A stretch of DNA of 64,000 bases from Lamellibrachia columna (taxonomy: Eukaryota > Annelida > Polychaeta > Sabellida > Siboglinidae), in NCBI GenBank assembly GCA_963662155.1, contig OY759267.1:34762976-34826975 (forward strand), written 5' to 3'. The notes below the pieces were generated by a model. It was not told the DNA's origin. It made no database searches and saw only the letters and a program-made list of their open reading frames with translations. Below, piece by piece: positions 10,541 through 57,615 of the stretch (position 1 is the stretch's first letter; the number at the start of each line of letters is the position of its first letter). Position numbers and translations under genes: made by a program.

Positions 10541-10568
10541 ATAAACAAATACAAATTTAATTTCTAAC

Positions 10569-11665: not shown

Positions 11666-11752
11666 ATGCGCAGGGGGAACTGACAGAGAAAACTCAAAGG
11701 AGTACTACTACAAATACACATCCAAAGAAATGTTCACCAATAATTTCAGACA

Positions 11753-29848: not shown

Positions 29849-30898
29849 TATATTAGGGGGGGTGGGGACATCTTCAATCTAGTGCAGCCTCCCTCCGATA
29901 AGTTACATCAAAGCAGAACAATTCACATTATAACATAATTACTTAGCAGTCAACTTTTGTTTATTTCAGTTAATTAGACACAGTCACCTTTACTCAAGTC
30001 CATGTTAAGAGCACACATCTATTGGGAGTTGAGAAAATCCTGGACAGGCCCAGCTGTTATCTGATATGGCCTAGTGAGCTGACGTAACTGTTTCACATGG
30101 AAGGTGAGTTGTTTTTGAGGAATCCACTAAGTAGGTTATGTAATGTTATGCAATTCGACAAGTTGAAGTGTCTGTCTTTTCATGAATCCACAGTCAAAGG
30201 TGATATTTGGGTCTGTTTACATAGGTGTATTGTGGCACCAGGTAAAAAATTATTATAACTTTCAGTTTGGAATAACAACTGGCTATATAGAATTTGATTA
30301 CAGAACACATGCTGGACTATTCCAAAAATTATGTTACAAGTTCATTCGAGTGAGCTGAAAAAGTGAGTGTATTCGAGTATCGTACTAGAATACAGACTGT
30401 CTCAAGCTGAAGTAGCTCATATATGTGTGTTCTGTCCACCACAGGTGGTGGTTCCTTGTGTATGTAAGCAACTCCAACAACTAGGTAGGACATAGATTTT
30501 TTGCATGAATGCATGATTTTCATTTACCTTTATCAACAGGCTAAATTATATTTTTTTTCTGCACAATTACCATTTTTATTTGGGGTAAGACCACAGTTGA
30601 CCTTCCTGTTTACTGTATCACAGGAATGTAAGGCACGCGAAATTGTGAAATGTGAACTTAATAAATTCATATTATGTGACATGAGTGCCTTTGAGCATGA
30701 ATATTCACAGGTTTGTTTATAGAAGCTATTGGCTGTGAAATAGTGCATTTTTTGGAGAGTTTTAACTGGCGGAGGGATTTATGGGAATTTTCTGCCATGG
30801 GCCATGTGGGCGCATGAATACACGTCGGAAACTGCCAGCAATCCTGAAGGAGTGGTTTGCACCACTCTGTCAAAGTCATCCTGGCTTAGCTGTGGCAA

Positions 30899-31078
30899 CT
30901 AAACCCCACTGCTAACCCCACTGGGTTCCTGTTGGATTGCTGCATCTGATGGTTTGTGGTAACAGTGGCCGGTCTTGAAGCCACCAATTTTCATCTTAAT
31001 TCCACCAGCAGGTGGACATTTCTCCTCACTCTTTCTACTACTACTACTACTACTACTATCATGTGTTGTCTCCTCCAT
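30899..31078 (-). pseudogene. B-unit truncated transposase N-terminus with early TAG
   Basis: Open from the ATG at 31078 but stopped at 30899 by TAG where other units have TGG (SGV-stop instead of SGVWLPRL). The same TAG is in the module A copy 1 transposase (6069-6071). Confidence 0.55.
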
Positions 31079-32104
31079 TTTAAAATCCCAGGTAAATCCA
31101 AGTAAAATTACTAATGAAAGTGACAAAACCGTTATCTGAATGCAAAGACATCTAATCCACCTGAGAAACCAGATGACAGTGACAGGAGACCAGTATATTA
31201 GGGGTGGTGGGGACATCTTCAATCTAATGCAGCCTCCCTCTGATAAGTTACATCAAAGCAGAACAAGTCACATTATAACATAATTACTTAGCAGTCAACT
31301 TTTGTTTATTTCAGTTAATTAGACAAAGTCACCTTTACTCAAGTCCATGTGAAGAGCACACATCTATTGGGAGTTGAGAAAATCCTGGACAGGCCCAGCT
31401 GTTATCTGATATGGCCTAGTGAGCTGACGTTACTGTTTCACATGGAAGGTGAGTTGTTTTTGAGGACTCCACTAAGTAGGTTATGTAATGTTATGCAATT
31501 CGACAAGTTGAGGTGTCTGTCTTTTCAGTAATCCACAGTCAAAGGTGATATTTGGGTCTGTTTACATAGGTGTATTGTGGCACCAGGTAAAAAATTATTA
31601 TAACTTTCAGTATAGAATAACAACTGGCTATATAGAATTTGATTACAGAACACATGCTGGACTATTCCAAAAATTATGTTACAAATTCATTCGAGTGAGC
31701 TGAAAAAGTGAGTGTATTCGAGTATCGTACTAGAATACAGACTGTCTCAAGCTGAAGTAGCTCATATATGTGTTTTCTGCCCACCACAGGTGGTGGTTCC
31801 TTGTGTATGTAAGCAACTCCAACAACTAGGTAGGACATAGATTTTTTGCATGAATGCATGATTTTCATTTACCTTTATCAACAGGCTAAATTAAATTTTT
31901 GTCTGCACAATTACCATTTTTATTTGGGGTAAGACCACAGTTGACCTTCCTGTTTACTGTTTCACACGAATGTAGGGAACGCGAAATTGTGAAATGTGAA
32001 CTTAGTAAATTCATATTATGTGACATGAGTGCTTTTGAACAAGAATATTCACAGGTTTGTTTATAGAAGCTATTGGCTGTGAAATAGTGCATTTTTTGGA
32101 GAGT

Positions 32105-32402
32105 TTAACTGGCGGAGGGATTTATGGGAATTTTTCTGCTATGGGCCACGTGGGCGCATGAATACACGTCGGAAACTGCCAGCAATCCTGAAGGAGTGGT
32201 TTGCACCACTCTGTCAAAGTCATCCTGGCTTAGCCGTGGCAACCAAACCCCACTGCTAACCCCACTGGGTTCCTGTTGGATTGCTGCATCTGATGGTTTG
32301 TGGTAACAGTGGCCGGTTTTGAAGCCACCAATTTTCATCTTAATTCCACCAGCAGGTGGACATTTCTCCTCACTCTTTCTACTACTACTACTACTACTAC
32401 TT

Positions 32403-32462
<60 letters not shown>

Positions 32463-32482
32463 TCATGTGTTGTCTCCTCCAT
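32105..32482 (-). pseudogene. B-unit truncated transposase N-terminus, long poly-Ser
   Basis: Open from the ATG at 32482. The Ser tract is enlarged to nearly 30 residues with Arg interruptions by the TAC/TTC microsatellite. The usual RKSEEKCPPAGGIKMKIGGF segment and the fusion tail VYSCAHVAHSRK follow. Confidence 0.55.
32379..32462. repeat. TAC trinucleotide microsatellite, expanded
   Basis: About 27-28 TAC triplets with one TTC interruption; most other B units have 5 to 8. It encodes poly-Ser on minus. Confidence 0.9.
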
Positions 32483-33506
32483 TTTAAAATCCCAGGTAAA
32501 TCCAAGTAAAATTACTAATGAAAGTGACAAAACCGTTATCTGAATGCAAAGACGTCTAATCCACCTGAGAAACCAGATGACAGTGACAGGAGACAAGAAT
32601 ATTAGGGGGGGTTGACATCTTCAAACTAGTGCAGCCTCCGTCTCATCAGTTACATCAAAGCAGAACAAGTCACATTATAATATAATTACTTAGCAGTCAA
32701 CTTTTGTTTATTTCAGTTAATTAAACGCAGTCACCTTTACTCAAGTCCATGTGAAGAGCACACATCTATTGGGAGTTGAGAAAATCCTGGACAGGCCCAG
32801 CTGTTATCTGGTATGGCCTAGTGAGCTGACGTAACTGTTTCACATGGAAGGTGAGTTGTTTTTGAGGACTTCACTAAGTAAGTTATGTAATGTTATGCAA
32901 TTCGACAAGTTGAAGTGTCTGTCTTTTCAGTAATCCACACTCAAAGGTGATATTTGGGTCTGTTTACAAAGGTGTATTGTGGCTCCAGGTAAAACATTAT
33001 TATAACTTTCAGTATGTAATAACAACTGGCTATAGAGAATTTGATTACAGAACACATGCTGGACTATTCCAAAAATTATGTTACAAGTTCATTCGAGTAA
33101 GCTGAAAAAGTGAGTGTATTCGAGTATCGTACTAGAATACAGACTGTCTCAAGCTGAAGTAGCTCATATATGTGTGTTCTGCCCACTACAGGTGGTGGTT
33201 CCTTGTGTATGTAAGCAACTCCAACAACTAGGTAGGACATAGATTTTTTGAATGAATGCATGATTTTCATTTACCTTTATCAACAGGCTAAATTAAATTT
33301 TTGTCTGCACAATTACCATTTTTATTTGGGGTAAGACCACAGTTGACCTTCCTGTTTACTGTTTCACACGAATGTAGGGCACGCGAAATTGTGAAATGTG
33401 AACTTAATAAATTCATATTGTGTGACATGAGTGCCTTTGAGCATGAATATTCACAGGTTTGTTTATAGAAGCTATTGGCTGTGAAATAGTGCATTTTTTG
33501 GAGAGT

Positions 33507-33824
33507 TTAACTGGCGGAGGGATTTATGGGAATTTTTCTGCTATGGGCCACGTGGGCGCATGAATACACGTCGGAAACTGCCAGCAATCCTGAAGGAGTG
33601 GTTTGCACCACTCTGTCAAAATCATCCTGGCTTAGCCGTGGCAAACAAACCCCACTGTTAACCCCATTGGGTTCCTGCTGGATTGCTGCATCTGATGGTT
33701 TGTGGTAACAGTGGCCGGTCTTGAAGCCACCAATTTTCATCTTAATTCCACCAGCACGTGGACATTTCTCCTCACTCTTTCTCCTACTACTACAACTACT
33801 ACTATCATGTGTTGTCTCCTCCAT
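33507..33824 (-). pseudogene. B-unit truncated transposase N-terminus
   Basis: Open from the ATG at 33824. The Ser tract carries a Cys (SSSCSSRRK), and NGVNSGVCLPRL replaces SGVSSGVWLPRL; NGVNSGV is shared with the copy 2 transposase. Confidence 0.5.
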
Positions 33825-34844
33825 TTTAAAATCCCAGGTAAATCCAAGTAAAATTACTAATGAAAGTGACAAAACCTTTATCTGAATGCAAAGACATCTA
33901 ATCCACCTGAGAAACCAGATGACAGTGACAGGAGACCAGTGTATTAAGGGGGGTCATCTTCAAACTAGTGCAGCCTCCCTCTGATAAGTTACATCAAAGC
34001 AGAACAAGTCACATTATAATATAATTACTTAGCAGTCAACTTTTGTTTATTTCAGTTAATTAGAAACAGTCACTTTTACTCAAGTCCATGTGAAGAGCAC
34101 ACATCTATTGGGAGTTGAGAAAATCCTGGACAGGCCCAACTGTTATCTGATATAGCCTAGTGAGCTGATGTAACTTTTTCACATGGAAGGTGAGTTGTTT
34201 TTGAGGACTCCACTAAGTAGGTTATGTAAAGTTATGCAATTCGACAAGTTGAGGTGTCTGGCTTTTCAGTAATCCACAGTCAAAGGTGATATTTGGGTCT
34301 GTTTACATAGGTGTATTGTGGCTCCAGGTAAAAAATTATTATAACTTTCAGTATGGAATAACGACTGGCTATATAGAATTTGATTACAGAACACATGCTG
34401 GACTATTCCAAAAATTATGTTACAAGTTCATTCGAGTGAACTGAAAAAGTGAGTGTATTCGAGTATCGTACTAGAATAAAGACTGTCTCAAGCTGAAGTA
34501 GCTCATATATGTGTGTTCTGCCCACCACAGGTGGTGGTTCCTTGTGTATGTAAGCAACTCCAACAACTAGGTAGGACATAGATTTTTTGAATGAATGCAT
34601 GATTTTCATTTACCTTTATCAACAGGCTAAATTTAATTTTTGTTTCCACAATTACCATTTTTATTTGGGGTAAGACCACAGTTGACCTTCCTGTTTACTG
34701 TTTCACACGAATGTAGGGCACTCGAAATTGTGAAATGTGAAATTAATAAATTCATATTATGTGACATTAGTGGCTTTGAGCATGAATATTCACAGGTTTG
34801 TTTATAGAAGCTATTGGCTGTGAAATAGTGCATTTTTGGAGAGT

Positions 34845-35142
34845 TTAACTGGCGGAGGGATTTATGGGAATTTTTCTGCTATGGGCCACGTGGGCGCATG
34901 AATACACGTCGGAAACTGCCAGCAATCCTGAAGGAGTGGTTTGCACCACTCTGTCAAAGTCATCCTGGCTTAGCCGTGGCAACCAAACCCCACTGCTAAC
35001 CCCACTGGGTTCCTGTTGGATTGCTGCATCTGATGGTTTGTGGTAACAGTGGCCGGTTTTGAAGCCACCAATTTTCATCTTAATTCCACCAGCAGGTGGA
35101 CATTTCTCCTCACTCTTTCTACTACTACTACTACTACTACTT

Positions 35143-35200
<58 letters not shown>

Positions 35201-35231
35201 TACTACTACTATCATGTGTTGTCTCCTCCAT
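34845..35231 (-). pseudogene. B-unit truncated transposase N-terminus, long poly-Ser
   Basis: Open from the ATG at 35231. Poly-Ser of about 30 residues with two Arg interruptions. Apart from the repeat length it is nearly identical to the unit at 32105. Confidence 0.55.
35117..35211. repeat. TAC trinucleotide microsatellite, expanded
   Basis: About 31 triplets with two TTC interruptions; the first is at the same place as in the tract at 32379, the second is private to this unit. Confidence 0.9.
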
Positions 35232-36255
35232 TTTAAAATCCCAGGTAAATCCAAGTAAAATTACTAATGAAAGTGACAAAACCGTTATCTGAATGCAAAG
35301 ACGTCTAATCCACCTGAGAAACCAGATGACAGTGACAGGAGACAAGAATATTAGGGGGGGTTGACATCTTCAAACTAGTGCAGCCTCCGTCTCATCAGTT
35401 ACATCAAAGCAGAACAAGTCACATTATAATATAATTACTTAGCAGTCAACTTTTGTTTATTTCAGTTAATTAAACGCAGTCACCTTTACTCAAGTCCATG
35501 TGAAGAGCACACATCTATTGGGAGTTGAGAAAATCCTGGACAGGCCCAGCTGTTATCTGATATGGCCTAGTGAGCTGACGTAACTGTTTCACATGGAAGG
35601 TGAGTTGTTTTTGAGGACTCCACTAAGTAGGTTATGTAATGTTATGCAATTCGACAAGTTGAGGTGTCTGTCTTTTTAGTAATCCACACTAAAATGTGAT
35701 ATTTGGGTCCGTTTACATAGGTGTATTTTGGCACCAGGTAAAAAATTATTATAACTTTCAGTATGGAATAACAACTGGCTATATAGAATTTGATTACAGA
35801 ACACATGCTGGACTATTCCAAAAAATATGTTACAAGTTCATTCGAGTGAACTGAAAAAGTGAGTGTATTCGAGTGTCGTACTAGAATACAGACTGTCTCA
35901 AGCTGAAGTAGCTCATATATGTGTGTTCTGCCCACCACAGGTGGTGGTTCCTTGTGTATGTAAGCAACTCCAACAACTAGGTATGACATAGATTTTTTGC
36001 ATCAATGCATTATTTTCATTTACCTTTATCAACAGTCTAAATAAAAAAAAATTCTGCACCGTTACCATTTTTATTTGGGGTAAGACCACAGTTGACCTTC
36101 CTGTTTACTGTTTCACACGAATGTAGGGCACGCGAAATTGTGAAATGTGAACTTAATAAATTCATATTATGTGACATAAGTGCCTTTGAGCATGAATATT
36201 CACAGGTTTGTTTATAGAAGCTATTGGCTGTGAAATAGTGCATTTTTTGGAGAGT

Positions 36256-36570
36256 TTAACTGGCGGAGGGATTTATGGGAAATTTTCTGCTATGGGCCAC
36301 GTGGGCGCATAAATACACGTCGGAAACTGCCAGCAATCCTGAAGGAGTGGTTTGCACCACTCTGTCAAAATCATCCTGGCTTAGCCGTGGCAACCAAACC
36401 CCACTGCTAAACCCACTGGGTTCCTGCTGGATTGCTGCATCTGATGGTTTGTGGTAACAGTGGCCGGTCTTGAAGCCACCAATTTTCATCTTAATTCCAC
36501 CAGCAGGTGGACATTTCTCCTCACTCTTTCTACTACTACTACTACTACTATCATGTGTTGTCTCCTCCAT
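36256..36570 (-). pseudogene. B-unit truncated transposase N-terminus
   Basis: Open from the ATG at 36570. Private changes: SGFSSGV, and the tail VYLCAHVAHSRKFPINPSA. Confidence 0.5.
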
Positions 36571-37945
36571 TTTAAAATCCCAGGTAAATCCAAGTAAAAT
36601 TACTAAAGAAAGTGACAAAACCGTTATCTGAATGCAAATACGTCTAATCCACCTGAGAAACCAGATGACACTGACAGGAGACCAGTATATTAAGGGGGGA
36701 CATCTTCAAACTAGTGCAGCCTCCCTCTGATAAGTTACATCAAAGCAGAACAAGTCACATTATAATATAATTACTTAGCAGTCAACTTTTGTTTATTTCA
36801 GTTAATTAGACACAGTCACCTTTGCTCAAGTCCATGTGAAGGACACACATCTATTGGGAGTTGAGAAAATCCTGGACAGGCCCAGCTGTTATCTGATATG
36901 GCCTATTGAGCTGACGTAACTGTTTCACATGGAAGGTGAGTTGTTTTTGAGAACTTCACTAAGTAAATTATGTAATGTTATGCAATTCGACAATTTGAGG
37001 TGTCTGTCTTTTCAGTAATCCACACTCAAAGGTGTTATTTGGGTCTGTTTACATAGGTGTATTTTGGCTCCAGGTAAAACATTATTATAACTTTCAGTAT
37101 GGAATAACAACTGGATATATAGAATTTGATTACAGAACACATGCTGGACTATTCCAAAAATTATGTTACAAGTTCATTCGAGTGAGCTGAAAAAGTGAGT
37201 GTATTCGAGTGTCGTACTAGAATACAGACTGTCTCAAGCTGAAGTAGCTCATATATGTGTGTTCTGCCCACTACAGGTGGTGGTTCCTTGTGTATGTAAG
37301 CAACTCCAACAACTAGGTAGGACATAGATTTTTTGAATGAATGCATGATTTTCATTTACCTTTATCAACAGGCTAAATTAAATTTTTGTCTGCACAATTA
37401 CCATTTTTATTTGGGGTAAGACCACAGTTGACCTTCCTGTTTACTGTTTCACACGAATGTAGGGCACGCGAAATTGTGAAATGTGAATTTAATAAATTCA
37501 TATTATGTGACATGAGTGCCTTTGAGCATGAATATTCACAGGTTTGTTTATAGAAGCTATTGGCTGTGAAATAGTGCATTTTTTGGAGAGTTTAATTGGC
37601 GGAGGGATTTGTGGGAATTTTTCTGCTATGGGCCACGTGGGCGCATGAATACACGTCGGAAACTGCCAGCAATCCTGAAGGAGTGGTTTGCACCACTCTG
37701 TCAAAGTCATCCTGGCTTAGCCGTGGCAACCAAACCCCACTGCTAACCCCACTGGGTTCCTGTTGGATTGCTGCATCTGATGGTTTGTGGTAACAGTGGC
37801 CGGTTTTGAATACAGACTGTCTCAAGCTGAAGTAGCTCATATATGTGTGTTCTGCCCACTACAGGTGGTGGTTCCTTGTGTCTGTAAGCAACTCCAACCA
37901 CTAGGTAGGATATAAATTTTTTGAATGAATGCATGATTTTCATTT

Positions 37946-39285
37946 ACCTTTTTTCAAAAATGTAATAAATTTTTTTTTTATGTTATAATAATATCAAAAT
38001 GTGCGAAGCGAAGCCAGCGACAGCGATTGATGTCGGCGGCAGCGCAAAACAAACAACACGTTGATACTCGTTCATTGACATTGTTCACCTAATGTTTCTT
38101 GAGAATTGTCAAAACAATTCTAAGTAGGTTTAAGCAGGCCCAGTTGGCATTTTCCCCTGGCGGCAGAAATTCGGGATCCACGACCGACCGCGTTATATCC
38201 GAATCCGCGTAATATTACATTACATCGTAAATATAATCGTTTTCGCGACGCGAAACCAACGAAAATACGAATTCGTCATCCGCATATGAAACGATGTTAA
38301 GTGGTGCGTAATAAATGTATGCTTCGGTCGAGATCGGTTGAAAGACGAGGTGATACAATTATTAATTCTACCTATTGTATTTTTCTGTGTTTTATCAGCT
38401 TACATACTACGTTTGTCAAATCATATACGTTTTCGGCTGCTCAGGTCCAGGTTATTATTTTCGATTCGTAGGCCTGTTGGTCCAGTACATCATCATCGTA
38501 GTAGATCTATTCCATAACAAAATACGTACGTGTGTTTTATTCAGTTCAAGAGTCAAGAGGGTGTGACATTTAAAAATAATACACGTTGATGCTAGTATAC
38601 TCGTTTAATAAGTTCCATAAACTGCATATTGCCGTATAAGATAATGGTGCAAGCACACGGGGCTTCGACAGCGTTCTTGGTCTTGGTGCAGCGGGCGGGG
38701 GTCGCTGTTGTTTAGTAGCTCCCTGGTGGCAGATATGAGAACACCTAACGCGCCTCGCTTACAGCGCGGTCCGAAGTCGTGGACCCCGACTACCGCGTTA
38801 TAACAAGGCTCGACTGTAGATGCAACGAGGTATGTAGCTAACTGATGAATAACCAAAAGTCACTTAGAATGTATTAGTATTACAAATGTATTGTTTTTCA
38901 TTGTTAAACTTGATGTCAAGATCAATCTCAAAATGCAGCACGCTGTCACATGTACTTTCCCAAATGTTATCCTTGTCAAATATAAGGCTAATCTACCAAC
39001 TTAATACTGTGTAGATCTGAGACAGTTGTGTCCAGTGACATTACTTATTTTGTGTAATCATCACTATAGCAAGGGGTGGTATAGTAGTACTACACTACCC
39101 CTAGCAGCAACACTAATTAAGTTCCAAGTTTCAACAGGGTTATCTGCCAGCTAGGGGTACTGTTGATCAACTGTCCATTTAGTAGGGGATTGGCCAACAT
39201 ATAACATCTGCCATGACTTATCTTCTGCATCATTAGTTATAGAGGAAATTTGTTTGAGCAGGATATAGACGCGTTGAGTGCCCAT
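37946..39285. other. Single-copy intergenic stretch upstream of DUF4806 copy 2
   Basis: It is not found elsewhere in the window. Its left part is CpG-rich (GCGAAGCGAAGCCAGCGACAG near 37998) and holds a MITE-like element (separate entry). From 38830 to 39285 it is AT-rich, with no gene recognised. A 5' UTR or promoter of the DUF4806 gene would lie here. Confidence 0.5.
38165..38825. mobile_element. Possible degenerate pogo/Tigger-like MITE
   Basis: The left side reads TCGGGATCCACGACCGACCG then CGTTATATCCGAATCCGCG; the reverse complement of the right side reads TCGGGGTCCACGACTTCGG then ACCGCGCTGTAAGCGAGGCG and starts CAGTCGAGCCTTGTTATAAC. The two are recognisably inverted copies, and the CGAACCGCGTTATA style is familiar from pogo/Tigger termini. 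No transposase is inside. The left terminus is eroded, so exact ends are unknown. Confidence 0.4.
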
Positions 39286-42200
39286 ATGAAAAGAGCACGG
39301 AAACGGGAATATTGCAGAAGATGGATGTCGGAAAAGAGAATAAAGTCCAAAATAGATGCAGATACACGTGAATTAATTGGAGACACTTCCGAAAATGAAA
39401 CATCAGAAGATGTGACAGAATTTCAAGAAAGCAATAATGACCAAGTTGAGCATAACACAAATGCTGAACATGACCACAGTGATGAACATGACCACAGTGT
39501 TGAACATGACCACAGTGATGAACATGACCACAGTGATGAACATGACCACAGTGTTGAACATGACCACAGTGTTGAACATGACCACAGTGATGAACATGAC
39601 CACAGTGTTGAACATGACCACAGTGATGAACATGACCACCATAGTGACAATGTTACTAATGATGATTATGATGACAATGCATACAGTGATACTATTACTG
39701 ATGACATCCCTACTGACAGGGAAGTAGAATCATACAGTGAGAGTGAATCATCAGAAAGGTGAGGTCTGGCAGAAATCCTGCCGCCCAAATTGTGAAAAGA
39801 CTCTTCGAAGAAATACAACATGAAGAGGAGTATACAACTCTACAAAGACATATTTATCATAGACGGCCAGATAATGCATACAGATCTAGTACTGTGAAGT
39901 GGTTTGTGTGGAGAATAGACAAGAAGACACATACAAATGCAGGATTTACCATTCACCAGGGGCTTTATTTATGCACCCATGTGATTCTCGGACTATTGGT
40001 GGCTGCACAGTGCGGAGAACAAACTATGAAATGAAAATTGTTGAAGGAAAAGTCCTAACTAAGAGATGTATAAGGATGGACTCTGGCAGTGACATTGTGT
40101 TTATTCAGCTCCTTCATGACTACTGAGGTACACACGCACACACACATGCTTACTTTGTTAATGTCCTTTGTAAAAAATCATATTGTATTATGTTAATAGC
40201 CATGATATTTGAGCCACCTGTTATAACTAACATATTACAAACATTAAAATATAGAGATGAATAAAACATTCATATGTAATTTGTAAGGCATAGAAATGCA
40301 TGCTGCACATGAAAACAAAATCAGTTTTCCAGAACCTATGTATCAACTGATAGAAGCTTGGGCTATGTCATTGATTATGTATTAGTATGGGACAAAACTG
40401 TGGAATTCGTTGAATGTCAGTGTAATTAATATTAAATTTTTCAATTATTTTAAAGCATAGAGAAAATATAAGCTTTGCCTGTGTAAAACTGTACAAGCTG
40501 ATTTGTAAACAGTTTTGATTTGATTTCACATCTCCTTGGTTTCAGTGTAGCCATGCCATACTCTGTGGTTCTTTTCAAAGAAGGTGATGCTGTGGAAGTG
40601 GAATGCGTACCAACATCATGGATAGAAAAAAGAGGAGATGGGGTAAGTAATAAAAATGCAATTTTTGTGTGGAATACTAATTATGGCTTAATTGGTTATT
40701 TGCAGACATTACCCAGGCTGACTACGTAAGAATTTGTTTTAGTGGAGAGGGGGAGGGTTCGTGTAAAAACATTTGGGTTATATTTTGAGAAAACCCGTGA
40801 CAGAAAACGCAGCCAAAATATCAAATAGCCAAACTTTTTGTCTCTCAATATGTATACTTAAATACATCTACAAATAGACAAAGATAAGGTCAGTTTGTTA
40901 CATTAACTATTTAATTTAATGTTAGTTATCTTTGTCATATTTGTTTAACTTGGCAGAAAATTTACTACTGGCCATCTGGAAATGACCAGAAGAAGAAAAT
41001 AAAGAGGAATGAAATGCCTGACAAGGCGCAGTGGACAGCATACAATGTTCGCATCATAGGCAAAACTGGTAATGCACATTATTCATAGTTACATATTAGA
41101 TTCATGATATGTAAAGTAGAATATAGGAGGGGTGGTTTGTTGCAGTCATGTTCTCATGATAGAGAATTGTCAAAATGTGATTGTTTTTAGAATAAAAAAC
41201 GCACCATTGGCTATTTTGTAATTAATTAGAAATGGAAAATGAGAAGGCCGACAACATTGTATATGCATGCTTTACAACAATTTACCAACAAATTAACTCA
41301 TGCTATTGTCATCAACCCATTTGTGAGTGTGTGACAACAGGCTTCATTGATTCTAAATGTATTGTATACTGCCAACCAATAATTGTTAAACATTTGTCCA
41401 TTTAGGCAAGGAGATCCTTTGTTTTTGTTGTAAGTTGAGACATTTTCCTGATTAATTCAGAGTACCCCGACTATGAGACAGCTTCCAAGTATGCGAAAAA
41501 GGCAGAGGATACATCTAATGTTGAGCCAGATGAAGCACAGGGGAAGCGGCATTGCCGAAAGCCAAAACGCTACCAATCTCCTGATTCACCGGCAGTAGTT
41601 AGTGAAGAGTGTGGAGAAGATGGTAATGAAAATTAAAATGCCCCATCTCATATTTGCTTTTATCATCCAATATGTATATCTTCCCAGTAGAGCGGTCTGT
41701 AATGAGAGGTGTCTATATGTTACAGAATTTTAAAGATGACCAATACTTTTATCCAAACATTTGTACATGGCCTTTTTATTCAACTAAAATCAATTGTAAA
41801 ATGTTATATCATACATTATTCAACATTCATAAGTATAGTGTGTACATGTGTTTGCAACACATTTCTTATTCTACCTTATTTGATGGGAAGTTAATGTGGT
41901 GTACATGTTTTCTATTTTCACAAATAATTTTGAAATGTGATTTGTGGACATTCTGTTGTTATGAAAGACTTTGGTGTCTGATTCTGGACAAATATCAATT
42001 TGATTGTAGGTTTAACTTCAAGAACATATCGGTATTCTACCAAGACAAATTCTGTACAACCCTGAAAATAGTTTCAGATTCAGAAGTTGAGGAAACTCCA
42101 GATACTGTGGAAACAGTTGCACTCCCTCCACCTCCTTTCAGTTTCTCAGGTAACAATTATACAAAAATACATAAAATATAGTTAATGTTCAACAAAGGAC

Positions 42201-44047
42201 AGTGGAACTTGATTAATCCTGACACCTTGATACCCACTGTATGTGTCTGGATTAACGAGCTATGATTTTAATATCAAAAGTATCGTGCATTTACTGTACA
42301 CATGTCTATCACACTTGTTGAATACTATAACATAATGTGGACATTAAATGTCATCTGATTCACTTGTACAGGTCTAATGGCTATTTATTGAAGAAGTCTG
42401 AGTTTTGTCTGCTTGGTTTCTCTATATCTACTATTGTAAGAATTTGATGTCTCTGTCCAAATGTATATCCTAAATATTTCATGTCACTGTGACTTTCATG
42501 TCAAATAAACTAATAGATAATAATATATAATTGTAACATTTATGTTCAATACAGCACTGGATACTGAAAGTGGCAGTGATTTGCCCACAGGTAAATCTTC
42601 TAAGCGTACAGAGCCACCACTTCGACCTAGTTGCAGTTCATCCCAGGCCCAACTTAAGCTGCCGCAAGTTCTCGGCAAACAACAACGTCCACAGGGTGAT
42701 GGACTGCAAATGGAGAGTCCTGGCAGATCACAGATGATGTCGAGCTCCTTCTGCATTCAAGGTACTCCTTTATGCTTCTTTACATGTAGGCCGTTTTAAG
42801 TGCTAATATACCATTGGTCTTTCCCTACTCAGGGGACCCCATGGGAAAATTTGACACTGTTTTTTTCCTCCTTGTCACCCCATTAAATAAGCATCATTCA
42901 ATTAAATAAATGCCCCTTTTCTTACCATTTGGGGGTTGCTGGCAGGGGGAGGACCCAACTAAAATTGCTGGCATTGGTCATTCCATAATCAGGGAACCCC
43001 AAATGAAGATTTGACACTCTTTTTAGCCTTGGCACAATTCCCATAAATAAATGTACTTCTTTCTCACCCTTTGGGGATTGCTTGCAGGGGGGAGCCCCAC
43101 CTAAAATTGCTTGCATCGGTTCAAGCGGATATAGTTTTTTCAGTTCTGGCCAAGCTAGAGAAACTGGAGAAAACAATGCAGGAGATAAAATTATCTCTCG
43201 TCACTTCACAGCCAGATGATGACTTGACATTAGACACCATTCTGCCTAATGGCAAGAAACTGAACACACTCAATGAACTGAGCAATTTTGAAAAACAGTT
43301 GGGTGAAGATGATGACATAAGGAATTGATTTAGTATGTTTAAGATATGTTTGAGTCAATTATAAAGTGGCATTGCTTTTTTACTGTATTTTTGAAGCAAC
43401 CTTAGAGTCTAAATTAATTTGGAAAGCTTTCTATACAGAACCTATTTCTAGGAATCATTGTGACATTTCAAATTATGCTTAAAGGTGTGAAATATAAATT
43501 ATTTCATGAATGTATGAATATCAAAATGGTCCAGCTTCATAATTGTTTAGTCAATAATGTTTGTGTTCCTTCAAGACAAGTTCACTTCATATAGCTACAG
43601 ATACTCTGACTGTAACTGATTGTTGGTCCAACATTATAACATGGGAAGCAAAAGGTTAAAATAATATAAAAAAAGATAAATTACCTATTTATTATTGGTT
43701 TAGGAATAAAAATTTGCTTGTGAGTGACAATAATGAGTTTCTGCAAGTGCATACATACATATGTACGTGTGTGCGCGCGTGCGTGCATGCATGCATGCAA
43801 ACAATTTTATAATATAGAAATGATCAAACTTTGTTCTTTTAAAATAGAGTTGTCATTTTATATAAAATATATATTTATTTTACACAGATTCAAATTCTTT
43901 CGTCACTAGAGGGTGCAAGCCTTGCTAGATCCTGCAGGGTCATTATGCGGTCACTGATGACTCATGGCCTTATGAGTTTGTTCGGTGTTATGTGGCAAAA
44001 GGGAAAACTACCCTTTCGAGACCATCTGCTGTGCAAAGTGGTCTCAA
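39286..44047 (+). CDS. DUF4806-domain protein gene, copy 2, eight exons (last one beyond a stop)
   Basis: Exons: 39286-39758, 40546-40642, 40957-41068, 41461-41622, 42078-42149, 42555-42761, 43144-43328, and 43888-44047. The first seven join with matching phases and no stop. Exon 1 is basic (MKRARKREYCRRWMSEKRI) then an acidic His-rich repeat; exons 2-4 give the head typical of DUF4806 proteins (YSVVLFKEGDAVEVECVPTS, KIYYWPSGNDQKKKI, AQWTAYNVRIIGKT, EYPDYETASKYAKKAEDTSN); exons 5-6 are a linker; exon 7 has VLAKLEKLEKTMQEIKLSLV and the DUF4806 N-half, ending DDDIRN-TGA. Exon 8 (SSLEGASLARSCR..., KLPFRDHLLCKVVS) looks like the C-half, but I find no GT donor joining it in frame. The protein is probably nuclear; its function is unknown. 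Start by first ATG; an upstream exon joined at TTTGAGCAG (39270) is possible. Confidence 0.65.
39466..39648 (+). repeat. 18-bp coding minisatellite, ten EHDHSD/EHDHSV units
   Basis: Ten near-perfect units of GAACATGACCACAGTG plus AT or TT, encoding a 61-residue acidic, His-rich tract. D and V versions alternate irregularly. The last unit has an extra CAC (EHDHHSD). Metal binding is conceivable. Confidence 0.95.
39890..40126 (+). other. Possible alternative exon in DUF4806 intron 1
   Basis: After GATCTAG the frame is open to TGA: YCEVVCVENRQEDTYKCRIY, HSPGALFMHPCDSRTIGGCT, VRRTNYEMKIVEGKVLTKRC, IRMDSGSDIVFIQLLHDY. The Cys/Arg spacing looks protein-like, but the acceptor is weak, and exon 1 joins exon 2 in phase without it. 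An overlapping frame (39759-40034) is also open. Confidence 0.3.
43750..43801. repeat. Alternating purine-pyrimidine tract, copy 2
   Basis: Identical in design to the tract at 2591: ATACATACATATGTACG, GTGTGCGCGCGTGCGTGCAT, GCATGCATGC. Confidence 0.7.
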
Positions 44048-44412
44048 GTAAGTATATTTCCATTGACCTGTGTGCTTATTATATTATCATGATCTTACTA
44101 TAAGCAATAGTTGTTTATTGATTACTAAACAATTTTTTTTCTAACAAATTCCCTTAACTTACAAAATCGTGGGCGCATGAATACACAGCTATTTTTTTGT
44201 AAATATTGACGGGCATCGCACATGGGGGCATTTTAAAAGAGCTGGAGGCATGTGATTTTGATAAACGTTGGTGAGCATGTCAATGAGATGATGGCAGTTG
44301 CTGCACATTTATTTCAGAATTTTTGATGGTCAGGTTTTTTTATAATCAGACAAAACGTTAACATGGCCACCAATGCAATTCCCAACTGTGGTCTGACTCC
44401 AAATAGAGTGTC

Positions 44413-44805
44413 ATGGCAACGGAAACAGAAAACATGGATGTTGATTTTTGTAAAAAGTACACTGCAAAATTACAAGAAAAGGTGGTATTGTCTGCCAATG
44501 GGCAGTGTCAGTTGTGGACAGGGTGCAAAAAAGGGAAATTCAGTGACTATGGTGTGATTAATTGCCGTTTTGAGTGTGGCTACAGAACGGTTACAGTGCA
44601 TCGTTTAAGTTATATGCTTGAACACAAAATGACACGTGTTGAACCTGGCTTAGATGCCAGTCATCTTTGTCATAACAGTCTGTGTCTGACAGCAAGTCAT
44701 ATCTCTATGGAGCCACATTCCATAAATAACAACAGGCAATATTGTGTTAGTCAAAATGTATGCTTTGGTCATGCACCATATCCAAAGTGTATGTTGCAAT
44801 TCAAG
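44413..44805 (+). CDS. His-Me finger (I-PpoI-like, zinc-loop) endonuclease, copy 2, motif intact
   Basis: ATG at 44413, open to 44892, with a possible donor TTCAAG|GTATTT at 44805. Residues 82-97 read ASHLCHNSLCLTASHI: H84 as general base, C86/C91/H96 as zinc ligands. N105 in SINNNRQYC sits 21 residues after H84, matching the H98-N119 spacing of I-PpoI. A second zinc site can be built from C111, C117, H120 and C126. Upstream C32/C38 could give the fourth ligand of site one. No homing intron is seen; the gene lies between DUF4806 and a convergent transposase. Role inferred: DNA cleavage, perhaps cargo of the element. Confidence 0.7.
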
Positions 44806-45116
44806 GTATTTCAATGGCAATGCAATAGTAAAACCTACATTTTTCTAGATGTGTTGAATCCTTCAGTTTTTTCAAAGTGTCGTCTGCTGTAGTCAATCTT
44901 ATGCAGTTGTGTATGTCAGCAAATGCTGAGTGATGTCTTCGAATGTCGATTGATGTATAGCTCACAAGGTGGCACCATGTGCCAGTCATGGTCCATTGTC
45001 TGTTGGTGGTTTCTTGTATTGTGGTTGCAGGTCTATGAGTGATGAAACTGGGAGAAAATAGAAAGTTCACATTTGTAAGAAGTGTTCTGTTTTCTGTTTG
45101 TTTCATAATCTACCCT

Positions 45117-47458
45117 CTACTTTCTGCTGGCATAACTGTGATCAGCAGACTTTCGTGATCGCAATGAATAAAGATGATCTTCCCTGTTTGCAGTTGGCAG
45201 TGTTGTCTTTCTGCGGCGACTCCTTGTGACCACTGGCTTAACTACTGCTGCTGGCGTTTCTGAAGCTGGCCTTTTCTTCCCTTTACGAGTAGATGGTTTT
45301 GGATCAAGCTGACACTTCAGGTATCGATCTTCTGGACGGCGGTTTCTGTTTGAATCGAAGTAGTTCTGCATGCGCTTTAACTTGGTATGACGGATATGCA
45401 GACGCACTGATGATCGACGTTTGTATTGTCTCTGGTATTCCACCTCATGCTGGATTTGCTTGACAGCTCTAGCGACCTGTCCACCTCTCGTAATAGGACA
45501 ATGTACATTCTCCAACTTGCGCAGCATTGAATTCCCCACTCCATAATTTATGCGATCGATCACTGAACTCACTCGTCCATGTGCATTTCTACTGAATTTA
45601 ACATTCTTCGGCAATGAAGCACTGAATGATCGGTTAATGGATTCATTCTTGTCAGTTGTAAGTCTGTGTCGTGTCATCTGGAGTGCTGAATTTCCAAGTC
45701 GCATTTCTATTAATCCTTTAAGTGTTGCTCGGTCTTCATCTGTCATATTGAGTCGTGTCAGGCCACATGCCTTCAAATGCTGTGACCTTTTCCACCAGTT
45801 GTTTCGCTTGCCTCCACGACAGACAATTCCATGTCGGTGGGTGACAGTTCTGACATGAGCCAGAATAACAGTCCAGTGTTGCTTGGTTTATTTTTGGCAT
45901 CTTAGTAGTTGTCATTCTTATGTCACCAGCATAAAGTGTGGCCTTTTCCACCAGTTGTTTCGCTTGCCTCCACGACAGACAATTCCATGTCGGTGGGTGA
46001 CAGTTCTGACATGAGCCAGAATAACAGTCCAGTGTTGCTTGGATTATCTTTGGCATCTTAGTAGTTATCATTCTAATGTCACCAGCATAAAGTGTAGATT
46101 TTCTGGCATCGTGTTCTTACATCCTCTGCAAAAATTTTCTTGTTTTCAGCTCTCACCATGGCATTCTCTCCCGGGAACATTCTGGATGAGAAAGATGCTC
46201 TCATGATATGTCAGAACTGTGTCTGACCGAGATGTGTTGTGTCAGCCTGCCGTTCTGCCGCGACTGTTGGCATGGCATCCTGTAACCCATGAAATGCTTT
46301 CGCATCACCGTCTGTTGCAACGAATTTTAGTCCGACCTGTTGTTGGGCAAAGCTCACTCCGATTTGGCGGCCTATTTCATATTCTGACATTGGATCGACC
46401 ACACGAATCGTGGCTGTACATCCTTGATGGCCTGTGCACGACACATTTTGACCTTGATTGCGAAGTGATGAGCCTAGTTTGCATAGCTTGTTTTCCATGT
46501 GAAAACCTAGAATCTCATGCTTGTCCGTCTGCCATTCAATCGCGGTTCCCACTGCTTGACTTGCACTCTGTCCACAACCGTAGCTGTTTTTCAGGGATGT
46601 TGAGTTGTACCTCACATCCATGCTTATATTGATTGGTGCATTTGCTGGAAGACCACGCAGAACATTTATCTCTGGGTTTTCCCTCTTCTGCTGTAGGTCA
46701 TCAGTCGTGGACTGAGAAGTAATTGTGGCAACCCGGTTGGATGTCCTTTGCATCCCGCTTCGACTTGGGGGAGGTGTGTTTGTTGTGGGCAGAATGTGTC
46801 GCAACTTTGTGTTTCCCATCGTTGTATCTTGTAGTCCTACATGGATGGCTACATTTGGAGCACACGGTTTCTGACCACGACTGCCCGTGTTTACTTCGGA
46901 ATACAGTTTATACATACGTGACTTGTAGTGACAGGCTGTACAGGACAATGACTGTTGCCAACACAAACCAAATTTTTTCTCATGTACTTCGAAGTGTGGA
47001 AGAATACATGTGTCCTCTCTGCTAGCATGCTCTTTAAAGCAATCATTCCACATTGCTGCATTTTTGTCCACACTAAGTAGACGCATTCCAGAAACTGCAT
47101 GAGTATCTGTCTGTACGTCAGCTTGAAGATAGATGTCTGTTAGGTCAGGGCATTGATCAAGCTGTGGCCGTAGAATTTTGCTCGTGCCTGGCCGACCCTC
47201 TGCGTCTGAAACTGCCAGCAATCCTGAATGAGTGGTTTGCACCACTCTGTCAAAGTCATCCTGGCTTAGCCGTGGCAACCAAACCCCACTGTTAACCCCA
47301 TTGGGTTCCTGTTGGATTGCTGCATCTGATGGTTTGTGGTAACAGTGGCCGGTCTTGAAGCCACCAATTTTCATCTTAATTCCACCAGCAGGTGGACATT
47401 TCTCCTCACTCTTTCTACTACTACTACTACTACTACTATCATGTGTTGTCTCCTCCAT
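45117..47458 (-). pseudogene. Mutator-like transposase (PF20700-type), copy 2
   Basis: Start ATG at 47458 (MEETTHDSSSS). The first block is open to 46211: poly-Ser; KIGGFKTGHCYHKPS; FGLCWQQSLSCTACHYKSRM; TTNTPPPSRSGMQR; INVLRGLPANAPINISMDVR; CTGHQGC; FVATDGDAKAFHGLQD, where Asp in SMDVR and TDGD look like the first two catalytic acids. A TGA (46211-46213) follows; in the same frame the protein clearly continues (MRASFSSRMFPG, FAEDVRTRCQKIY), then shifts frame through a 156-bp duplication and resumes in 45117-45776 (CGLTRLNMTDEDRATLKGLI, SLPKNVKFSRNAHGRVSSV, basic tail). The breaks are also in copy 1. Either it is a shared ancient pseudogene, or small introns and readthrough operate. Confidence 0.75.
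45782..46093. repeat. 156-bp tandem duplication inside the transposase, copy 2
   Basis: Units start at 45782 and 45938, spacing 156 as in copy 1. The two units differ at a few positions (GTGACC versus GTGGCC). Confidence 0.85.
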
Positions 47459-47982
47459 TGTAAAATCCCAGGTAAATCCAAGTAAAATTACTAATGAAAG
47501 TGACAAAACCGTTATCTGAATGCAACCACGTCTAATACGCCTGAGAAAACAGATGACAGTGACAGTGACAGGAGACCGGCATATTAGGGGGGGGGTGGGG
47601 ACATATTCAAACTAGTGCAGCCTCCCTCTGATAAGTTACATCAAAGCAGAACAAGTCACATTATAATATAATTACTTAGCAGTCAACTTTTGTTTATTTC
47701 AGTTAATTAGACACAGTCACCTTTACTCAAGTCCATGTGAAGAGCACACATCTATTGGGAGTTGAGAAAATCCTGGACAGGCCCAGCTGTTATCTGATAT
47801 GGCCTAGTGAGCTGACGTAACTGTTTCACATGGAAGGTGAGTTGTTTTTGAGGACTCCACTAAGTAGGTTATGTAATGTTATGCAATTCGACAAGTTGCG
47901 GTGTCTGGCTTTTCAGTAATTCACACTCAAAGGTGATATTTGGGTCTGTTTACATAGGTGTATTGTGGCACCAGGTAAAAAA
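47213..47982. repeat. Module B, partial unit at the transposase 5' end, copy 2
   Basis: It continues from the transposase N-terminal coding into the B 5' flank and spacer and stops at GTGGCACCAGGTAAAA, joined to module C (CTTTCCTTTTCAGATTTTTC). The same B-C junction occurs at about 59442. A GACAGT triplication (GACAGTGACAGTGACAGG) is near 47554. Confidence 0.85.
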
Positions 47983-48588
47983 AAAATATACTTTCCTTTT
48001 CAGATTTTTCAAAATGTTTCTGTCCAACATGAATCCCTCTACCTTTCCACGAGCATTCGCTCCCTGTTGTATCCAGCATCGCATTTCTACCTCTGAATGC
48101 TCATCCTCATTAACCATTCCTCCACGTTACACAAAGCCATCCACTTGGTTGAACTCCTCATCATCCAAACTAATGTTCAAGTCCTCTCTCTGATGTCAAA
48201 CACACATCTCTTCTGTCTTCTCCCGGCTCATTATCGGTCCGTGCTTCTTGAACATCCTCTTCCATTGCTCCAACACTTCCTGTAGTTCTTGTTTTTTGTC
48301 TGCTATCATGGCCAGATCGTTTGCATACATCCCCTTTCTGAGAACATCCTTCATGCTGATCTTCCTGCTGATTAGTGCCACCACCATGATAAAGAGTAAA
48401 GGGTCATTTCCGTGCCTCTAACCGTTGTTAACTTTAAACTCTTCCGACAACCCATATCCAACCACAACTCTTGTTTTTGTTCTCAGGAACATGACAGTTA
48501 TGGGTGTTGCACGCCATGACACAGAACTGACTAAATACAACCAACTCATTACAAAGTCAGACTCCCAGATAAGTCAGACTCCCAGATA
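47983..48588 (-). pseudogene. Module C fragment with RT remnant, before D2
   Basis: On minus it carries GVR-type RT core pieces and YANDLAMIADKKQELQE (near 48300). It ends with a 17-base tandem duplication, AAGTCAGACTCCCAGAT twice (48554-48587), directly against module D. Confidence 0.75.
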
Positions 48589-48836: not shown

Positions 48837-48865
48837 ATAAGTTCTTGGCTCATGCTGATTATTGC

Positions 48866-53896: not shown

Positions 53897-56384
53897 TCAC
53901 AGTTGTTCTAATAAATCAGTATTTGCGCTGAGTAGTAATGGCTTATGTTTTGGTAACCAGATTGATTTGTTTAATGTTTTTATTTATACTTTCACTGTAC
54001 ATCCTTCTTGTCAAAGGATATTTGATTTTTTATGAGCATGCTCTAGTCAAGAAAAGTACGTCGTTTATATGAGTACAACCATATGGTAAAATGCATATTG
54101 CTCAAACAAAGATACATATGAGAGATTGATTTTGTAAATATTTAGCAAATATTCTATTGAAATAATGTTTTTTCTCATAAGCAATTTATACACTGCTTAT
54201 GAAAATGTTGACCATATTATTGGATTTATTAAACATAACTTTTTTTTACCAAACTAACGGTGCTTTTCCTCTTTTTTCACTGATTTTCATGGGTTAGGTT
54301 CAGGTAAAATATTGTCCAGTCATTCTTTCTTCTTTTCTTTCCATACTTTTTTATCGGCTGCCCCCTCTCCATCTTTCATTTTCCCCCGATCTTCTCATAT
54401 CCCACCTCACGCAATCCTTCGATCTTAGCTGTTCGTTCCCCTTTTCTTGCATCCTTGATGTTTTTTCACATTTCTCTTCCACTCTCTTTACTAGTATGTC
54501 TGCATCCATCCTTACCATGTGGCCTGCCCATTTCATCTTGCTTCTCACCAATCTTCCTGTTGAACTGTTTGTTGCATCACATATTTCGTCAGGTCGTTCA
54601 TCTTTCTTTCGTCAACCCTCTTTGTTCGTGTTATTCGACAAAACCAGAACCAACTTTCAGGTGCTGTTGTTGTTCTGTCAACGCCACTGTCTCCAGATAC
54701 AGATTAAGGCATGCTTGTGTAACACAAGCTCTCAGGACTTTCCTTTTCAGCTTTTTCAAAATGTTTCTGTCCAACATGACTCCCTCAACCTTTCCCCAAG
54801 CATTCGTTCCCTGTTGTATCCGGCATCGCATTTCTACCTCTGAATGCTCATCCTCATTAACCATTCCTCCAAATTACACAAAGCCATCCACTTGGTTGAA
54901 CTCCTTATCATCCAAACTAATGTTCAAGTCCTCTCTCTGATGTCAAACCCACATCTCTCCTGTCTTCTCCCGGCTCATTATCGGTCCGTGCTTCTTGAAC
55001 ATCCCCTTCCATTGCTCCAACACTTCCTGTAGTTTTTGTTTTTTGTCTGCTATCATGGCCAGATCGTTTGCATACATCCCCTTCCTAAGAACATCCTTCA
55101 TGCTGATATTCCTGCTGATTAGTGCCACCACCATGATAAAGAGTAAAGGGTCATTTCCTTGCCTCTAACCGATGTTAACTTTAAACTCTTCCGACAACCC
55201 ACATCCAACCACAACTCTTCTTTTTGTTCTCAGGAACATGACAGTTCTGGGTGTTGCTCGCCATGACACAGAACTGACTGAATACAACCAATTCATTACA
55301 AAGTCAGACTCCCAGATAAGTACAAAAGGTGTTGGAATGAACAGGTCAGCCAGGGAGTGAACTGTTAAGCACGTTGAACAATCCCAAGGAGTGGATACAG
55401 TGCTGTGTAAACATAAACATGCCTTTACTTTAGGTGTTTTTGCAGGTGCTGCGGCAGCCAGGAACAATTTTGGTGGACCGAGAGTAAACAATATCAAGGG
55501 TCACTTCAATCGGATCGCGCTTGCCTATCCCCACTTTGTGTTTTGGTACAGGTTGGTGTCATAAGTAGACATAACCGCCTTAGAAACAGGCCATTCATGG
55601 TGCTCTTGCAAATTCATTGGATTATGAGTGAAACAGACATTGCAAAAACTGTAACAATGAATTGTGGGGGAGGGGAGAATGTCACATTAGATTGAGAAAC
55701 TAACTTTTAGATTTGTTCTAATAAATCAGTATTTGCGCTGAGTAGTAATGGCTTATGATTTGGTAACCAGATTGATTTGTTTAATGTTTTTATTTATACT
55801 TTCACTGTACATCCTTCTTGACAAAGGATATTTGATTTTTATGAGCATGCTGTAGTCAAGAAGATTACGTCGTTTATATGAGTACAACCATATGGTAAAA
55901 TGCATATTGCTCAAACAGAGATACATATGAGAGATTGATTTTGTAAATATTTAGCAAATATTCTATTGAAATAATGTTTTTTCTCATAAGCAATTTATAC
56001 ACTGCTTATGAAAATGTTGACCATATTATTGCATTTATTAAACCTAACTTTTTTTTACCAAACTATCGGTGCTTTTCCTCTTTTTTCACTTATGTTCATG
56101 GGTTAGGTTCAGGTAAAATATTGTTGAGTCACTCTTTCTGTTTTATCTTTCCATACTTTTCTATCGGCTGCCCCCTCTCCATCTTTCATCTTGCCCCTCT
56201 CCATCTTTCATCTTGCCCCTCTCCATCTTTCATCTTGCCCCTCTCCATCATTCATCTTCCCCCGATCTTCTCATATCCCACCTCACGCAGTCCTTCGATC
56301 TTTGCTGTTCGTTCCCCTTTTCTTGCATCCTTTATGTTTTTTCACCTTTCTCTTCCACTCTCTTTACTAGTATGTCTGCATCCA
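53897..56384. repeat. Module C, about 1.4 units, between D2 and B array 4
   Basis: Same two junctions as 27389-29848. In the last part the CTCTCCATCTTTCATCTTGC line is present in more tandem copies than in the earlier module (56180-56260). Confidence 0.9.
54351..55200 (-). pseudogene. Non-LTR reverse transcriptase remnant in module C
   Basis: YANDLAMIADKKQKLQE, QGTNAWGKVEGVMLDRNILK and VRSKMKWAGHMVRMDADILV in separate frames. A base lost near 54568 (GTTTGTTGCATC instead of GTTTTGTTGCATC) makes an extra frameshift. Confidence 0.7.
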
Positions 56385-57300
56385 GTATATTAGGGGGGGG
56401 GGGTGGGGACATCTTCAATCTAGTGCAGCCTCCCTCCGATAAGTTACATCAAAGCAGAACAAGTCACATTATAACATAATTACTTAGCAGTCAACTTTTG
56501 TTTATTTCAGTTAATTAGACACAGTCAACTTTACTCAAATCCATGTGAAGAGCACACATCTATTGGGAGTTGAGAAAATCCTGGACAGGCCCAGCTGTTA
56601 TCTGATATGGACTAGTGAGCTGACGTAACTTTTTCACATGGAAGGTGAGTTGTTTTTGAGGACTCCACTAAGTAGGTTATGTAATGTTATGCAATTCGAC
56701 AAGTTGAAGTGTCTGTCTTTTCAGTAATCCACAGTCAAAGGTGATATTTGTGTCTGTTTACATAGGTGTATTGTGGCACCAGGTAAAAAATTATTATAAC
56801 TTTCAGTATGGAATAACATCTGGCTATATAGAATTTGATTACAGAACACATGCTGGACTATTCCAAAAATTATGTTACAAGTTCATTCGACTGAGCTGAA
56901 AAAATGAGTGTATTCGAGTATCGTACTAGAATACAGACTGTCTCAAGCTGAAGTAGCTCATATATGTGTGTTCTGCCCACCACAGGTGGTGGTTCCTTGT
57001 GTATGTAATCAACTCCAACAACTAGGTAGGACATAGATTTTTTGCATGAATGCATGATTTTCATTTACCTTTATCAACAGTCTAAATTAAAAAAAATTCT
57101 GCACAGTTACCATTTTTATTTGGGGTAAGACCACAGTTGACCTTCCTGTTTACTGTATCACACGAATGTAGGGCACGCGAAATTGTGAAATGTGAACTTA
57201 ATAAATTCATATTATGTGACATGAGTGCCTTTGAGCATGAATATTCACAGGTTTGTTTATAGAAGCTATTGGCTGTGAAATAGTGCATTTTTTGGAGAGT

Positions 57301-57615
57301 TTAACTGGCGGAGGGATTTATGGGAATTTTTCTGCTATGGGCCACGTGGGCGCATGAATACACGTCGGAAACTGCCAGCAATCCTGAAGGAGTGGTTTGC
57401 ACCACTCTGTCAAAGTCATCCTGGCTTAGCCGTGGCAACCAAACCCCACTGCTAACCCCACTGGGTTCATGTTGGATTGCTGCATCTGATGGTTTGTTGT
57501 AACAGTGGCCGGTCTTGAAGCCACCAATTTTCATCTTAATTCCACCAGCAGGTGGACATTTCTCCTCACTCTTTCTACTACTACTACTACTACTATCATG
57601 TGTTGTCTCCTCCAT
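57301..57615 (-). pseudogene. B-unit truncated transposase N-terminus
   Basis: Open from the ATG at 57615; CYNKPSDAAIQHEPSG replaces CYHKPSDAAIQQEPSG. Tail ends INPSAS. Confidence 0.5.

What the first reader, a model, noticed from the sequence alone, without database searches (positions are those of the whole stretch)
39286..47458. Composite unit: DUF4806 gene, I-PpoI-type endonuclease and Mutator-like transposase, duplicated as a block
Seen: three genes in a compact convergent layout, present twice in the window with the same spacing. Known: DUF4806 proteins, PF20700-type transposases and zinc-loop His-Me finger nucleases are each linked to mobile DNA in invertebrates. Inferred: the block is one large DNA transposon in which the nuclease and DUF4806 are passengers or accessory factors. 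I do not know this combination as a described element.
Basis: partly seen in the sequence, partly recalled or inferred. Interest (0 to 1): 0.75.

Follow-up and report, generated by a model that had tools for sequence, protein, structure and literature searches.

The report
Broken KolobokP transposon in giant repeats
The nuclease and transposase genes are the two genes of an already described animal DNA transposon (KolobokP) that is now broken, and the third gene is a fragment welded to it once and then copied along with it in huge tandem repeats, so this is mostly a new example of something known.

Summary
The I-PpoI-type nuclease (44413-44892, +) and the PF20700 transposase (47458-45117, -) are real, but together they are a decayed KolobokP, a Kolobok DNA transposon published in 2022 with exactly this pair (PMC9587614). 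The 1340-bp tandem units nearby are its shortened derivatives: a long terminal direct repeat (LTDR) plus a deleted internal region.

The third gene is a predicted multi-exon fragment (about 39250-44047, +) that I could not confirm as DUF4806. It is not part of the transposon as far as read: 8 of 18 fetched loci hold a KolobokP without it, and no LTDR was seen on its far side at five loci (2.2 kb read at three, under 0.2 kb at two). It was joined to a truncated KolobokP at 44168|44169; that exact junction occurs 125 times genome-wide, commonly about 100 kb apart.

All transposase copies read share one stop codon. Variation in nuclease, transposase and gene fragment looks neutral. The "block" is therefore a unit of a TE-built macrosatellite, not a new mobile element. 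The most interesting leftover is whether the nuclease started the expansion by cutting LTDRs, as proposed for KolobokP; nothing here shows it.

The parts
37978..44168 (+).
   Evidence: junction identical in the 11 fetched copies; 125 exact 36-mers genome-wide
40553..44047 (+). Seven predicted coding exons of the third gene (40553-40642, 40957-41068, 41461-41622, 42078-42149, 42555-42761, 43144-43325, 43888-44047); an acidic repeat-rich ORF lies upstream at 39250-39762
   Evidence: splice sites read by eye; exon 6 lacks a GT donor in all 12 copies read
44169..47577 (-). KolobokP internal region, nuclease-side end lost (canonical copies have about 550 more bp of internal region and then an LTDR)
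44413..44892 (+). [quoted passage not shown]
46211..47458 (-). Kolobok DDD/E transposase, N-terminal part up to the shared stop codon
45117..45887 (-). Transposase C-terminal part, in a different frame
45781..46095 (.). 156-bp tandem duplication inside the transposase
47578..47990 (.). LTDR (about 410 bp) on the transposase side; outer end AATATACT abuts repeat R
47990..48574 (.). Repeat R (retroelement-like; weak RVT_1 match, below the family cut-off, at 48196-48417, -) next to the LTDR in all 14 copies whose end could be read
29847..37977 (.). Tandem (LTDR-INT')n array, 1340-bp units; INT' is a deletion derivative of the KolobokP internal region holding the transposase N-terminus; ends with a jump at 37810|37808 and unit position 712 at 37977
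3004..3039 (+). Same third-gene|KolobokP junction in copy 1
   Evidence: C7:34765979-34766014
3268..3735 (+). Nuclease of copy 1; catalytic His84 changed to Arg and His87 to Leu
3975..6068 (-). Broken transposase of copy 1
6355..15995 (.). Second (LTDR-INT')n array, interrupted by a LINE at 9648-14633
56384..59451 (.). Third (LTDR-INT')n-LTDR array, between two R repeats, without third gene or full internal region

Best explanation
A KolobokP transposon (DDD/E transposase plus convergent I-PpoI-like nuclease between ~410-bp long terminal direct repeats) once came to lie in repeat R. It multimerised with internally deleted derivatives and lost its transposase to a stop codon. One copy lost its nuclease-side end and became joined to the 3' part of an unrelated multi-exon gene. 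After that the composite was copied passively, by unequal exchange and inter-chromosomal duplication, as part of a tandem macrosatellite (X - R - KolobokP multimer - R - X ...), with the gene-bearing form returning about every 100 kb. Shown: KolobokP identity, shared lesions, shared junctions, copy numbers, neutral decay. Inferred: order of events, the copying route, and that the arrays are continuous between the stretches read.
For: Nuclease and transposase match KolobokP's published pair and layout. LTDR-INT-LTDR copies are in 8 of 18 fetched loci, on C2, C11, C12, C13, C14; one is about 4.72 kb (L020) against 4.02-4.75 kb published. The same TGA stop is in 28 of 28 transposase rows, which are 24 distinct loci (L001=window, L002=L023, L003=L024, L007=L026). 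The 156-bp duplication is in 17 of 18 mapped loci. The same LTDR|R junction is in 14 of 14 loci whose outer end could be read, on C2, C5, C7, C11-C14. Third-gene|KolobokP junction: 125 exact copies, 0 in the reversed control. In five same-strand clusters (78 of the 100 listed places) spacing medians are 104, 103, 100, 119 and 140 kb on C2, C4, C5, C10, C7. Two 9.9-kb samples inside one C5 interval consist of the X-R-K units, one with a KolobokP lacking the third gene. Neutral variants: nuclease 14 syn/48 nonsyn/3 stop against 15.0/47.1/2.9 expected over 40 copies; transposase 18/61/4 against 20.9/59.0/3.2 over the 28 rows; third gene 2/14/2 against 4.5/12.7/0.8 over 10-12 copies.
Against: Nuclease ORFs are still open in 20 of 40 copies by a strict count (16 of 40 also keep the four motif residues checked), so loss is incomplete. 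L011 lacks the 156-bp duplication. The third gene's origin is unknown and no unfused copy was identified; two edges without the exact junction (C7:31005048, C7:31282020) were not read. Spacing on C7 is irregular (10-356 kb). Inverted repeats of the LTDR are only 8 bp here, and no target-site duplication could be shown.
Confidence: 0.8

Rival explanations
1. The three genes form one large DNA transposon in which the nuclease and the third gene are passengers.
For: The three stay together in 91 of 93 comparable edges. In this window unit sequence lies on both sides of the third gene (positions 542-712 at 37808-37977 and 960 onward at 44169).
Against: KolobokP occurs without the third gene in 8 of 18 loci and in L051. 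The left junction of the window is absent at L024, L026, L027, L028 and L029, which show a minisatellite there. The readable right ends are all the same R junction (14 of 14).
Confidence: 0.07
2. The nuclease itself drove the expansion: it cut LTDRs and repair by unequal exchange lengthened the arrays (the Kojima and Bao model), after the transposase was dead.
For: LTDR multimers in tandem (14 LTDRs in 64 kb). All transposase rows share one stop, so the copies multiplied after it arose. Open nuclease ORFs in 20 of 40 copies.
Against: No purifying selection on the nuclease (14/48/3 against 15.0/47.1/2.9). The catalytic His is lost in 4 of the 20 open copies and in copy 1. R and X repeats, which hold no nuclease, are repeated along with it.
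Confidence: 0.1
3. The third gene is a real DUF4806/BEN-type host gene family under selection that carries the transposon along.
For: Five of six predicted introns have GT-AG signals in all 10-12 copies read. DUF4806 genes lie in several copies on zebrafish chromosome 4 (one passage of PMC11075544 seen).
Against: No Pfam match. Neutral-looking ratios and two stop variants among copies, in a small sample; exon 6 lacks a donor in all 12 copies. It has no recognisable 3' end before KolobokP begins.
Confidence: 0.05

Closest known systems
KolobokP (Kojima and Bao 2022, Mobile DNA, PMC9587614)
   Same: DDD/E transposase with CCHC finger and DxxH; I-PpoI-like nuclease convergent and downstream; long terminal direct repeats; multimers; similar length
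   Different: Transposase broken in all copies read; LTDR ~410 bp (published ~450 or ~660); embedded in very large repeats; some copies fused to a foreign gene fragment
I-PpoI and other His-Cys box homing endonucleases
   Same: S/H, H, E and N motif residues align with I-PpoI 97/98, 110, 114, 119 (weak match E=0.0077)
   Different: Carried by a DNA transposon instead of a group I intron
TE-derived satellites and macrosatellites (recalled)
   Same: Tandem units built from transposon pieces, spread over chromosomes
   Different: Very long higher-order spacing (~100 kb) with a homing-endonuclease transposon as building block
DUF4806 (PF16064), described in a passage of PMC11075544 as a BEN subtype
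   Same: Exon order and N-terminal look resemble it in my recollection only
   Different: No profile match

Membership tests
KolobokP | DDD/E transposase with C/DxxH between second D and E | tested here: met
   D406-T-T-H409 in alignment A1; D281, D383/385; E (KNE) in the C-terminal piece; a model of relative P0035 (pLDDT 78.5) places the matching residues on strands and a helix in RNase H-like order (judged by position, no fold search possible)
KolobokP | CCHC zinc finger after the first D, and a second finger after DxxH | tested here: met
   C326, C341, H344, C347; CYSGSC...C
KolobokP | I-PpoI-like His-Me nuclease downstream on the complementary strand | tested here: met
   the structure model of the nuclease failed (pLDDT 38)
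KolobokP | LTDR-INT-LTDR with LTDR around 450 or 660 bp | tested here: met
   8 of 18 loci (partly deleted on one side in L014, L015, L022), LTDR about 410 bp, slightly short; not met by the window's own two copies, which lack the nuclease-side LTDR
KolobokP | LTDR with own 11-18 bp TIRs, 5'-RR...YY-3' | tested here: inconclusive
   AGTATATT...AATATACT: 8 bp, AG...CT, at outer ends only; microhomology with R could explain the right end
KolobokP | 3-5 bp target-site duplication | tested here: inconclusive
   Left and right flanks are R positions about 230 bp apart; all 14 readable ends share one junction
KolobokP | Multimers (LTDR-INT)n-LTDR | tested here: met
DUF4806 protein | Match to PF16064 | tested here: not met
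   no hit at E up to 1 and up to 10, for a fragment without its 3' end; none in the genome, but its controls also gave none

The most novel reading that the evidence does not exclude
A homing-endonuclease transposon whose transposase is dead has seeded huge tandem arrays, with copies on at least eleven chromosome-scale contigs: the nuclease cut LTDRs and forced unequal repair, amplifying everything next to it, including a foreign gene fragment, and then decayed neutrally once arrays were large.
Probability: 0.1. Interest if true: 0.65.

Novelty: new member of a known kind. Interest (0 to 1): 0.3.

Why it matters
It gives the "undescribed combination" its published name and shows how easily tandem repeats make unrelated genes look like one mobile element. 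It also offers a natural test of the KolobokP model: arrays with 125 identical junctions and transposase-dead copies separate spread by transposition from spread by exchange, and here the nuclease shows no sign of selection.

Tried and rejected
Passenger in one large transposon: rejected from copies without the third gene and from far-side reads. Nuclease kept by selection: not supported. Relatives in IMG/VR and GTDB genomes: none confirmed. Tblastn of the nuclease against phage records: 365 records, all under 60% identity, none covering 80% of the query; the best-ranked are HNH endonucleases at 28.6%. Rfam at gathering score and tRNA scan of the window: nothing. Nuclease structure: useless model. 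The genome-wide count of canonical junctions was not obtained: the first pattern came from one unrepresentative unit and found 1 match, and later tries did not complete. Also did not complete: PF20700 in the genome, an LTDR pattern count, and DNA searches with the nuclease and with the 5' part of the third gene (not repeated). Alignment A1 was unusable as a query. The open count treats any indel, including 3-bp ones, as broken; one of the 41 full-length nuclease rows I expected fell below its length limit, and the part rows of L001-L008 were left out; L050 and L051 were fetched later and are not in it.

Full report
What is there. The window lies at C7:34762976-34826975 of an 879.7-Mb genome in 30 contigs. 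Self-comparison shows a mosaic of large near-identical blocks: 1-6771 with 41163-47995, 22282-32396 with 48856-58915, and a 1340-bp tandem unit with 14 copies of its core. In the block, Pfam recognises a Mutator-like transposase (PF20700) and an I-PpoI-type zinc-loop nuclease (PF05551). The third gene, read by eye as seven exons, has no Pfam match and no database homologue at E 0.001. PF16064 (DUF4806) found nothing in the whole genome, though that search's controls also found nothing.

What the pair is. A library search led to PMC9587614 (parts 1-4 of 6 read, plus a term search), which describes KolobokP: a DDD/E transposase and a convergent I-PpoI-like nuclease between long terminal direct repeats, with solo LTDRs and multimers, in seven animal phyla. 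It does not mention DUF4806 in its main text. Searches for 'KolobokP' (one paper; with related terms, listing only) and for 'DUF4806' (four papers, of which I saw one passage each in two; with 'transposon': three) found no description of the three-gene combination; the library holds only open-licence papers. The window's transposase has the DxxH motif and both zinc fingers. A model of its relative P0035 (pLDDT 78.5) has an RNase H-like order of strands and helices with D251, D354/356 and E528 at the expected places; this was judged by position only, as no fold search was possible. The nuclease aligns with I-PpoI over its catalytic part (weak, E=0.0077) and keeps the equivalents of S97, H98, H110, E114 and N119. 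In copy 1 the catalytic His is Arg. Relatives of both proteins sit on contigs of the same length (1,070,295 and 288,120 bp), which suggests, but does not prove, that the pair travels together elsewhere.

The tandem unit. The 1340-bp unit is LTDR (~410 bp) plus a shortened internal region. Its right part equals the transposase N-terminus (47203-47565), and 18 bp next to it equal 44169-44186, so it is a deletion derivative of KolobokP. The arrays are therefore KolobokP multimers. One is interrupted by a LINE (9648-14633).

Is the third gene part of the transposon? Eighteen 10-kb loci around transposase matches were fetched (chosen by me from the 40 scored matches, mostly those off C7) and mapped. 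Eight contain a KolobokP whose nuclease side runs through the internal region to a second LTDR, without the third gene (with partial deletions there in L014, L015 and L022). Eleven (L009 has both forms) have the third gene joined directly to the nuclease side at the same base. On the far side of the third gene, L027, L028, L029, L024 and L026 show a 271-bp AT-rich minisatellite (read for 2.2 kb in the first three, 195 and 39 bp in the last two), not an LTDR; L028 has a diverged R-like stretch about 2 kb away. The unit sequence left of it in the window (37808-37977) is thus best read as a local rearrangement. All 14 loci whose transposase-side end could be read share one LTDR|R junction; of the other four, two continue as multimers and two are cut by the stretch end.

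Scale. A 26-mer at the third gene's edge occurs 118 times and a 36-mer across the junction 125 times, with 0 for the reversed control (each lists only the first 100 or so places). In the range listed by both, 91 of 93 edges have the junction; the two without are C7:31005048 and C7:31282020, not read further. Junction or edge copies are listed on C2, C4, C5, C6, C7, C9, C10 and C11, and one was read on C14; canonical copies were read on C2, C11, C12, C13 and C14. Same-strand spacing in five clusters that I picked (78 of 100 listed places) is about 100 kb on C2, C4 and C5, 119 kb on C10 (two intervals) and 140 kb on C7, where it is irregular. Two 9.9-kb samples inside one C5 interval are made of X-R-K units, one of them with a KolobokP lacking the third gene. 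So the repeat looks like a macrosatellite in which the fused form recurs; continuity between the stretches read is inferred.

Alive or dead. All 28 transposase rows (24 distinct loci) have the same TGA; the 156-bp duplication is in 17 of 18 mapped loci, L011 having one unit and L018 three. Among 40 nuclease copies 20 are open by a strict count, of which 4 have lost the catalytic His. Variants are 14 synonymous, 48 nonsynonymous and 3 stop against 15.0, 47.1 and 2.9 expected without selection. The transposase part gives 18/61/4 against 20.9/59.0/3.2. The third gene gives 2/14/2 against 4.5/12.7/0.8, in few copies. None shows purifying selection; the expectation is my simple model with transitions weighted twofold.

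Conclusion. A known transposon type, broken, was joined once to a gene fragment and copied passively as part of a macrosatellite. Shown: identity, shared lesions, shared junctions, copy counts, neutral decay. Inferred: the order of events and the copying route. Nuclease-driven growth of the arrays, proposed for KolobokP, remains possible at the start but has no positive support here.

Noticed in passing
window 9648-14633: A LINE with an esterase-like (GDSL) ORF, endonuclease and reverse transcriptase (PF13472, PF14529, PF00078) inserted in a KolobokP derivative array.
   Followed up: partly
window 21929-22668, 48587-49260, 60049-60422: Repeat X, present three times in the window, starts after a shared R piece or close to it and carries a 65-bp minisatellite; no gene recognised by eye in its ORFs.
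   Followed up: partly
window 39465-39639: 18-bp tandem repeat encoding EHDHS(D/V) repeats in an acidic ORF upstream of the third gene.
   Followed up: no
window 32379-32462, 35119-35211: CTA microsatellite lengthens a poly-serine stretch of the transposase N-terminus in derivative units.
   Followed up: no
L021 6274-7805 and L022 2056-3217: Two copies on C14 and C12 carry an unmatched insert at the same transposase position.
   Followed up: no
L027 591-2271: 271-bp AT-rich minisatellite (CCCAGCAAACACAATACTG...) next to the third gene in five loci.
   Followed up: partly
L011 1158-3112: This C2 copy lacks the 156-bp transposase duplication yet has the shared stop codon, so the stop may be older than the duplication.
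   Followed up: no
protein P0048: A KolobokP-like transposase is filed under a bacterial endosymbiont of the tubeworm Escarpia laminata; probably host DNA in the assembly. A GTDB scan with it confirmed nothing.
   Followed up: partly
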